Source of the DNA: Ascidia mentula
Lineage: Eukaryota > Chordata > Ascidiacea > Phlebobranchia > Ascidiidae
Reading direction: 5' to 3'
Assembly: GCA_947561715.1 (NCBI GenBank)
Contig: OX387197.1
Span: 8,677,001-8,741,000 of the forward strand
Length of the DNA stretch: 64,000 bases
The translations under genes and the position numbers were made by a program. The first letter of the stretch is position 1. Each line of letters begins with the position of its first letter. Below are positions 44,401-47,400 of this stretch, in pieces. Below the pieces are notes generated by a model, which ran no database searches, had not been told where the DNA came from, and saw nothing but the letters and a program-made list of their open reading frames with translations.

Positions 44401-47400
44401 ACAGGAAACTCAAAAAGTGTGAGGTTTTCTGATGGAACCCGTCCAGATCACCCTGATACTCTTCCCGCTACCCCTCCACCACCAAGCAGAATGCCAAGGT
44501 ATTTTTACAGCTAAACAATTTGCATTTAGTCTTAAAATTCATGACGGTAACCTTTAACACAGGGCTGGTAGGACAAGGCAAAGGAACCCCGCACAGGACT
44601 CACCATTTCCACCTGTTATTGTTGGCAAGTGTATTTTAGTACCTACTCACTGGTAAGACCTGTTAATAATATTTTTTGTTGCAATGCAGATACTTACGAT
44701 GATGGTAGTTTGGTGATAGAGGAGTATCCTGATCAAGCCCTGATAACAACACTACTCCAACCCGACAACCTGAAGCCACTGAGATTTGCACTTGGGCCTA
44801 ATCTTTATGTTTCTCTGCGTGTTATTAAGTGTAAGTTAATGTAATAATCCTTGCAAGGCTTCATCTATATGTAAAAGACTAACTGATAAATCGGTTTATT
44901 CAATTAAACCTTATTTTATGTGATCCAGTCAAACCAACTGGATTTTTGAAGCACTGTATGTAAACTAGTGGGGCTATATAAATGTCAATGTAAACACAAC
45001 CAGTCCTCTGAAAGTCACACCAGCTGCAATGATGAGACCTTTTAGGTCGAAACAGTGGCCATCTGTCTGCAGCTTACACAACTACATAATTATAACATTT
45101 TTTGAGTTGACTTTCGCATGCAATATAGTGTAATTGGTTCAGGTACAGCCCACAGCACAAAAAATCAATACAAAATACTCTTACCAACTGTGAAGTATTC
45201 TTTATTTACTGTTCGGCTTTGCAGACAAATCAATTCCATGCTACTACTTTGTGTCACATGGACTGGACACAGTCGGACAGGCTGAGGTTGCATTTATTCT
45301 ACAAATTAAACATTCTGCCTATGACTTGCCTCTTCATGCTTTTACCATTTATTCCTTTCTTTTCACTAATTCAAGAAAAGGAAAACCTGTTCATGCACTT
45401 GACTTTGTTCCTGCTTCTGACATGTAAGACTCTGTAATATCTTTATGCTAAATATTGGCTGATTGGTAAACATCCAAATTATTCAAGATCTGAAATTAAA
45501 AACATTAAGAATGTGTAACGCAGTTTCATACTTTGTTAGAAAGCACATCTTGGACATTGTTTTTAAAGTTGTTATTAGATCAATGTGTGCTACATATATC
45601 AATTAGCAAGGTTTAGCATGAATGTAAATTTCACGGAAGCAATACAGAATAGTGATTCAATTATTTTTTGACCCACACTGCCCCCAACATATTGCAAGTC
45701 ATATTTTGTTTCAGGATATCAGAAGAACCTTATTTTGGAGTGGCTGATTTAATTGGCACATTATTTGTGAGAAAAACCTTCCAGATTATTGATTTGGAAG
45801 AAGAAAGTGGTAAGTATGTCTTGCCAAGTGAATTTGTGGACCATTTCGTTCAGGTGTCCCAATCTTCATTTCCTCCTTCTCCTATTTGACAGATCCCTCA
45901 TTTTCGTCACTCACAGTCAAACCATCTTCTACATTATTTGCTTTGCTGGTCCACAAATCTGAAAAACCGTGGGCCACCTTGTTTCCTTCACGATTGCTGC
46001 TTGGTCTCGGTGCCAGCTCAAAAGGTACACTCCAAAACATTTTCATAAAATTACCAAAGTAGGTATTTCTTGCCCTAAATTTAAACAATAAACTTGTACA
46101 AACAAATGAATGTGCCCAACGCAAAATGCTTACTCTTAATTTAGTTAATACCTAATATTTGGTCATTGTTGATGTTTCCAGAATTTCCCTATCCTATCAC
46201 GAACAGCTTGGAAAGAAAGTCGGTTTATCCAGAAACTGCCAACACGATACTTGGGATATTGTGTGATTTAAGAAACTTCAAGTACAAGGTTGTTACAGTG
46301 CCTGGACTGAGTGTCACGATCAAAGAACATGGTATTCTCATCAGCATACCAGTTAACAGGTGGTGATAAAACTTTTAACGCTCTGCACTCCTAGTTACAT
46401 TAACGGTTGAGTGCTAAAAATGTTTACGAGGCCATACATGCCAAAATCATATTTAAACATAGACGCCATTTTGGGCATGATGTCAGTAGTTCAACAGCTG
46501 TTGTTAGATGTGAAAAAAGTTTGTAAGCTTTATAAATTATAGGTAATTAGTATGTAGCTTATTTGTATTAGATTATAGCAAATAGCCACATGTTGGCATT
46601 CAACCAATGTACCCTTAAAAACATGCTGGCATCCAGAGTGTTAATTTTCATATATAGCACTAGGTACAGGAAGCTGCAATACTTGGCATATTTGAAACAT
46701 TAAGCCAATTTCCTTGAGCACACTGACATTGGAAGTGTAGCAATGGAACATATGTTTGTCCCAATTTCAGAAAGCTGATTATCTTTCAACTAAAGAATTA
46801 CCGGTATTATTATGTAACAATGCAGTTCTGTGCTTTGTAGGTTTAACGAAATCGTGAAGATATTGAATAGTTCCAACGAACATGTTCTTGCGCTTGGCTC
46901 TGATGTTTTGTCCTGTCAAGATGAGAACTTTCAATCTCATCTTGTCGCTGTTCAAGATCACTCCAACCTTTCCTACCACACTGAAGTACTTCAAAGAAGT
47001 TTGAGTAACGTAAGCTGAATTGTATAGAAAGTTAAAATTAAACAATTACCAATACAACCTGTGAAAAAATGAAGTTATGTTACTGCAATCTTTAAACATT
47101 TATCTTTTAACACTTGCCTGTGTAATTTTATAACCAGAAAAACCAAGTTGTACAATATTTGAATAATGCTCTGTGATATAAAAGAAAATTGCTTTCACCA
47201 CCAAGTTCACATTAGAAACTGGTAACAAATAAACTTAAGCCACCGGCAATGAAAAAAGGTTTTACTGATCTTTATTCTTCATAACAAAAATCATGGCTGT
47301 GCAGTTTTATTACCAGTTGGATGTTGTGTTGCAGGTTGGTGAAACGTCACCAGATACAGGGGTGGCATTTGTTGTGTTTAATGGTTCCTTGAAATCTGGC

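What the first reader, a model, noticed from the sequence alone, without database searches (positions are those of the whole stretch)
45022..45074. Hammerhead-like ribozyme fold in a sense intron
Three helices, the GAA core, TGATGA and a canonical GTC cleavage triplet all fall in order within 53 bases. Stem I has seven perfect pairs, stem II five and stem III four. The single departure is C3 to A. Chance agreement of all parts is unlikely. It may be a decayed ribozyme from a Penelope-like element or retrozyme, or an intronic hammerhead under altered constraint. A second small hairpin (44923-44943) lies in the same intron.
Basis: partly seen in the sequence, partly recalled or inferred. Interest (0 to 1): 0.75.

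Follow-up and report, generated by a model that had tools for sequence, protein, structure and literature searches.

The report
Broken hammerhead ribozyme from a retrozyme
The fold is real: it is a fragment, with one broken catalytic base, of a small self-cleaving mobile RNA element that has about two thousand copies in this genome, and the insertion marks of the better-preserved copies point to Penelope-type elements as the machinery that moves them.

Summary
No motif this good appeared in 156 Mb of random sequence. It is not an isolated intronic ribozyme. It is an 80-bp truncated piece (45002-45081) of a dispersed family with 2188 near-exact hammerhead cores in the same genome. The copies closest to it have C3, so the window copy is a mutated member, lying in sense in an intron (44831-45224) of a SARA/endofin-like gene. 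The family has the genomic marks of a non-LTR animal retrozyme: 285-bp units, dimers to multimers, target duplications mostly 9-14 nt. Less expected: in 37 of 37 head-to-head insertions with a clear duplication, one flank ends at one 3' site (E1) and the other about 31 nt further on (E2). A GIY-YIG Penelope-like element (PLE) in the same genome shows the same rule (15 of 16 pairs; the odd one is an inverted duplication), 12-bp duplications and C|N12|G flanks. This supports PLE-type machinery acting in trans. Rfam models do not recognise even intact copies above threshold. Ribozyme activity, circular RNA and the exact PLE partner are untested. The window copy is probably inert.

The parts
45002..45081 (+). 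5'-truncated retrozyme copy ending at the short 3' end (E1, TTACACAA)
   Evidence: 80 nt differ from five copies (L002, L007, L008, L009, L014) at 2 sites only, 45006 and 45029; genome matches
45022..45074 (+). Type I hammerhead fold, C3 replaced by A
45029..45029 (+). Position C3 of the catalytic core, A in this copy and C in related copies
45067..45067 (+). Scissile C17 of GUC; cleavage would follow it in an active copy
   Evidence: position by hammerhead convention (recalled)
44994..45000 (+). Possible left target duplication ACACAAC (7 nt, inconclusive)
   Evidence: sequence; matches of 7 nt or more arise in about 13% of mismatched flank pairs (control)
45076..45082 (+). Possible right target duplication ACACAAC; overlaps the element's own E1 end, so inconclusive
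   Evidence: sequence
44831..45224 (+). Host intron, 394 nt, of a SARA/endofin-like gene, same strand
   Evidence: splice sites, joined reading; FYVE at 43816-43989, SARA_C at 46145-46366 and 47433-47633

Best explanation
The site is a dead fragment of a retrozyme, a small non-coding retrotransposon that carries a type I hammerhead ribozyme. Inferred from known animal retrozymes: tandem units are transcribed, the ribozyme cuts the RNA into 285-nt monomers, and these are closed into circles or remain multimers. Inferred from the insertion anatomy shown here: a PLE-type reverse transcriptase with a GIY-YIG endonuclease cuts both strands of an AT-rich target about 12 bp apart and primes reverse transcription from each 3' end on retrozyme RNA, one strand starting at site E1 (16 nt past the ribozyme cut) and the other at E2 (about 31 nt further). 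The two cDNAs meet head to head, giving arms from under one unit to several units. The window copy is a single short arm ending at E1 that landed in sense in an intron and lost C3, so it should no longer cut the pre-mRNA.
For: 2188 cores within 2 mismatches of 28 nt, reversed-pattern control 0. Tandem arrays of period about 285. Target duplications of 8 nt or more in 50 of 69 loci, against 16 of 414 mismatched flank pairs, scaled 2.7 of 69. 85 of 87 outward ends of those 50 loci fall at E1 or E2; 37 of 37 head-to-head insertions have one of each, including 14 of 14 in the two sets not fetched with a head-to-head query (L002-L020 8, L021-L050 6). Arms longer than one unit in 16 of 37, in both arms in 6. 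PLE family L091 in the same genome: 15 of 15 single-insertion head-to-head pairs have one short and one long end; duplications of 8 nt or more in 8 of 11 distinct insertions, 12 nt in 7, C before and G after in 8 of 8 and 7 of 8. Retrozymes with a 12-nt duplication: C before and G after in 8 of 12 each. PLE reading frames carry RVT_1 and GIY-YIG (for L094 RVT_1 is under its cut-off).
Against: Rfam gives no hammerhead match above threshold for the window, for 20 loci or for two intact copies looked at closely. No cleavage or circular RNA could be tested. The retrozyme unit shows no significant similarity to the four PLE stretches and its end sequences are unlike those of L091, so the actual partner is not identified. 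No hammerhead fits a loose descriptor in those four stretches. Over all 37 loci C before and G after occur in only 14 and 17. A purified anole PLE showed no difference of RT start site between strands (PMC11167929), so strict one-of-each use is not explained by that work. 19 of 69 loci lack a duplication of 8 nt or more, the window copy included. In a 285-nt linear monomer the core can pair otherwise (ACUG with CAGU), competing with stem III.
Confidence: 0.88

Rival explanations
1. A retained, functional intronic hammerhead regulating this gene, like the conserved amniote intronic hammerheads, with a C3-to-A change under altered constraint.
For: It lies in sense in an intron and the three stems are intact.
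Against: It is one truncated member of a 2188-core family, 2 differences from sister copies in 80 nt; C3 lies in the catalytic core, and C3G abolishes cleavage in a PLE hammerhead (PMC11167929; C3A itself not reported there).
Confidence: 0.03
2. The family moves by LINE-type target-primed reverse transcription, with twin priming making the inverted arms.
For: Variable duplications, 5' truncation, inverted arms.
Against: Strict one-of-each use of two fixed 3' ends in 37 of 37 and the same pattern in a local PLE match the PLE tail signature (PMC3846280, PMC11167929) and are not a known feature of LINEs (recalled). No LINE was searched for here.
Confidence: 0.08
3. A DNA transposon with terminal inverted repeats (MITE-like).
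For: Inverted arms and duplications resemble one.
Against: Arms are unequal, of variable length and can hold several tandem units; the two outer ends differ; duplications vary from 8 to 14 nt; 11 loci with a duplication have a single arm ending at E1 or E2.
Confidence: 0.01
4. Chance resemblance to a hammerhead.
For: Rfam score at background; fold energy z -1.57.
Against: 0 in 156 Mb random; the related copies have the full CUGAUGA core and fewer core changes (7 of 520 sites) than neighbouring sites (75 of 1639) in 40 copies (Fisher p 0.0003, with non-independent copies and one site polymorphic between subfamilies).
Confidence: 0.01

Closest known systems
Non-LTR retrozymes of animals (Cervera and de la Pena 2020, PMC7229834; parts 1-4 of 6 of the text read)
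   Same: Type I hammerhead, 170-400-bp tandem units from dimers up, GC under 50%, target duplications longer than 4 bp, thousands of dispersed copies, PLEs in the same genome.
   Different: Head-to-head arms and two fixed 3' ends are not mentioned in the passages found (search for 'inverted' and 'opposite' in that text gave 0). That paper names PLEs only as a strong candidate for mobilisation.
Penelope-like elements with pLTRs and tail (A. vaga Penelope, PMC3846280, passages; anole PLE, PMC11167929, main text)
   Same: Head-to-head inverted repeats, a 30-40-bp tail on one of the inverted ends, short duplications, two RT start sites, cutting and extension of both strands.
   Different: The retrozyme codes for no reverse transcriptase; in vitro no start-site difference between strands was seen, whereas here each insertion uses one of each.
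LTR retrozymes of plants (PMC4918200, search listing only; described in PMC7229834)
   Same: Non-autonomous, hammerhead-bearing, circular RNA intermediate proposed.
   Different: Type III hammerhead, LTRs, 4-bp duplications.
Conserved intronic hammerheads of amniotes (recalled; mentioned in PMC7229834)
   Same: Type I fold in an intron.
   Different: Those are single conserved motifs; this is a decayed repeat copy.

Membership tests
Hammerhead ribozyme, type I | Three helices, open at stem I, with CUGAUGA, GAA and NUH | tested here: not met
   Window copy has A at C3; the rest is met. Related copies such as L002-L020 meet it.
Hammerhead ribozyme, type I | Rfam score above gathering threshold | tested here: not met
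   No match for the window or 20 loci; best hammerhead scores 18.0 and 20.6 bits in two intact copies, cut-off 48.5. RF00163 genome search rang nowhere, controls included.
Hammerhead ribozyme, type I | Self-cleavage | not testable with these tools
   Needs in vitro transcription.
Non-LTR animal retrozyme | Tandem units of 170-400 bp, each with a type I hammerhead | tested here: met
   285-bp units in arrays; the window copy itself is a truncated fragment.
Non-LTR animal retrozyme | GC under 50% | tested here: met
   47% in one 285-nt unit.
Non-LTR animal retrozyme | Target duplications longer than 4 bp | tested here: met
   8 nt or more in 50 of 69 loci.
Non-LTR animal retrozyme | Abundant circular RNA | not testable with these tools
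   No RNA data.
PLE-type insertion | Head-to-head arms with the tail on one side only | tested here: met
   37 of 37; local PLE 15 of 16 pairs, the sixteenth an inverted duplication.
PLE-type insertion | Sequence shared with a resident PLE | tested here: not met
   No significant match to four PLE stretches; other PLE families not examined.
C/D box snoRNA | Rfam snoRNA match above threshold | tested here: not met
   SNORD25 17.4 bits, cut-off 39.

The most novel reading that the evidence does not exclude
Each retrozyme insertion, and each insertion of a resident PLE, uses the two reverse-transcription start sites exactly once each, one per cut DNA strand, as if a two-subunit PLE complex holds the RNA asymmetrically. 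The retrozyme is then a trans-mobilised parasite of PLE machinery, and its genomic copies record that rule.
Probability: 0.6. Interest if true: 0.72.

Novelty: new member of a known kind. Interest (0 to 1): 0.5.

Why it matters
What moves animal retrozymes is open; PLEs were proposed as a strong candidate on co-occurrence, hammerheads and tandem copies (PMC7229834). Here the insertion anatomy itself carries a PLE-like signature, and a resident PLE shows the same. That makes the question directly testable with purified PLE protein and retrozyme RNA, and the one-of-each rule gives a sharp prediction about how both DNA strands are primed. The window copy itself is ordinary decay.

Tried and rejected
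Rfam scans and the RF00163 genome search were uninformative, since even intact copies score low. A DNA-transposon reading of the inverted arms was dropped once arm lengths and ends were measured. The lead that PLE L091 shares GCAGCTTAT/GCTTATCAT with the retrozyme end was dropped: the matches are 9-10 nt, not significant, and L091 insertions end elsewhere. The ends of families L092 and L093 were looked at through matches and gave no link to the retrozyme; flanks were not fetched. A first end-finding script with loose motifs mis-set several borders and was replaced (one search ended with an error after printing, when saving its table). A wider census of other hammerheads was asked for five times and never answered. 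One search for the organism by assembly size found nothing; the organism is not identified. No covariance model was built, because the copies are too alike and decay on their own.

Rows dropped before counts: of 90 loci (L001-L090), 74 had distinct element sequence; L001 got no cluster (it is the window copy, kept as L081); 5 (L025, L030, L035, L036, L086) were dropped as the same element or a duplicated stretch, leaving 69. L029 and L031 share flanks and were both kept; neither has a duplication, so neither enters the 37. Of 6 further loci with two outward arms but no duplication of 8 nt, 4 (L004, L016, L021, L070) also have one E1 and one E2, and 2 (L011, L078) could not be assigned. L051-L080 were fetched with a query that is itself a head-to-head insertion, so that set may be biased towards that form. 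Of 16 PLE pairs, the one with equal ends (C67:6425556 and 6429574) was set aside because its two 45-nt flanks are exact reverse complements (L113, L114). Flanks were fetched for 14 of the 16 pairs. 11 distinct insertions assumes that near-identical or same-spaced pairs are duplicates. The PLE flank control gave 8 nt or more in 11 of 182 mismatched pairs, some of them from such duplicates.

Full report
Observation. The motif is as described. The minimum-free-energy structure is exactly the three-helix fold (-16.3 kcal/mol), though 14 of 200 shuffles fold as well. A descriptor allowing one core mismatch finds this single site in the window and none in 156 Mb of Markov sequence. Rfam gives no match above threshold; below it, the best are SNORD25 at 17.4 bits and RAGATH-1 hammerhead at 15.5 bits.

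Setting. The site lies in a 394-nt GT-AG intron, 44831-45224, on the coding strand. Exons before and after read through when joined. The gene has an FYVE finger and SARA_C pieces on the same strand, so it is SARA/endofin-like.

Relatives. A 361-bp query around the site matches at least 54 places in the same 195.8-Mb genome (40 of 1254 candidates scored), the other places over window 44994-45097 only. The copies L002-L020 read CTGATGA where the window has ATGATGA, apart from other changes in some. Five of them differ from the window copy only at 45006 and 45029 over 80 nt. A 28-nt core pattern with up to 2 mismatches has 1132 forward and 1056 reverse matches, reversed control 0. The version with A at C3 has 10 exact matches; by eye 7 are breakpoints at that base, and only the window copy and one other locus (two arms) keep stem I beside it.

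Unit. Arrays repeat about every 285 bp, for example one minus and six plus cores at C1:3332469-3334205. One unit is 47% GC and folds better than shuffles (z -2.66, 4 of 200 as good).

Insertions. In 69 loci the flanks share an exact repeat of 8 nt or more next to the element in 50, most often 12 nt (17 loci); mismatched flanks give 16 of 414. In these 50 loci, 37 have two arms pointing outward (head to head), 13 have one arm, none is tail to tail. Of 87 outward ends, 44 lie at E1 (TTACACAA or TTATACACAA) and 41 at E2 (about 31 nt on, GCTTATC), 2 elsewhere. Each of the 37 has one E1 and one E2: 8 of 8 in L002-L020, 6 of 6 in L021-L050, 20 of 20 in L051-L080, 3 of 3 in L081-L090. Under equal free choice the chance is 2 to the power -37. 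E1 is on the left in 19 of 37. An arm exceeds one unit in 16 of 37 and both arms in 6, so templates were multimers or circles; E2 arms are longer in 21 of 37, Wilcoxon p 0.04. Duplications are 81% AT against 63% in flanks.

PLE comparison. GIY-YIG matches number 121 (150 of 382 candidates scored). Four stretches hold long frames of 787-886 aa; all pass the Pfam cut-off for GIY-YIG and three pass for RVT_1, the fourth (L094) scoring 21.8 against 29.6. L092's frame runs off the fetched stretch. The L091 family is itself arranged head to head in tandem at C67:6134028-6146916. Its ends fall at query positions 226-236 or 262-271 among the listed matches (40 candidates scored). 16 head-to-head pairs can be read: 15 have one short and one long end, and the other is an inverted duplication. 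Duplications of 8 nt or more were found in 8 of 11 distinct insertions, 12 nt in 7, with C before in 8 of 8 and G after in 7 of 8. In retrozymes with 12-nt duplications C and G each occur in 8 of 12; over all 37 the fractions are 14 and 17. A. vaga Penelope elements are described with head-to-head inverted pLTRs, a 31-bp tail on one of them and 8-10-bp duplications (PMC3846280, passages). The anole PLE protein starts reverse transcription at two adjacent sites, matching the 30-40-bp tail, and cuts and extends both strands, but without a strand difference in start site (PMC11167929). The retrozyme pattern fits this machinery. The stricter pairing seen here is an inference about how it works in vivo.

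Limits. Activity, RNA circles and the partner PLE are untested. No significant sequence link to the four PLE stretches was found, nor a hammerhead in them with a loose descriptor. The 90 loci are not a random sample of 2188 cores. Searches of the open-access library (listings) showed no title or abstract start reporting this end rule for retrozymes, but most subscription papers are not held and the listed papers were not all read.

Verdict. The window feature is a decayed copy of a new family of a known kind. The interest lies in the family's insertion signature, not in the window copy.

Noticed in passing
44923-44943: Perfect 7-pair hairpin ATCCAGT/ACTGGAT in the same intron; not part of the repeat and not remarkable by hand estimate.
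   Followed up: partly
L091-L094; C67:6134028-6146916: Several PLE families with long open GIY-YIG/RT frames, one in a head-to-head tandem array; possibly recently active.
   Followed up: partly
L113, L114 (C67:6425556 and C67:6429574): The two outer flanks of a PLE pair are exact reverse complements over 45 nt, a large inverted duplication.
   Followed up: no
L038:969-1253: In the linear monomer fold, ACUG of the core pairs with CAGU of stem III, an alternative that could hold the ribozyme inactive.
   Followed up: no
L038 unit: 285 is divisible by three; one frame of the repeated unit has a 94-codon opening per lap. Probably chance; not compared with other copies.
   Followed up: no
L002-L020 versus L035-L080: Two subfamilies at the E1 end, TTACACAA and TTATACACAA; the long arrays seen carry the second.
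   Followed up: partly
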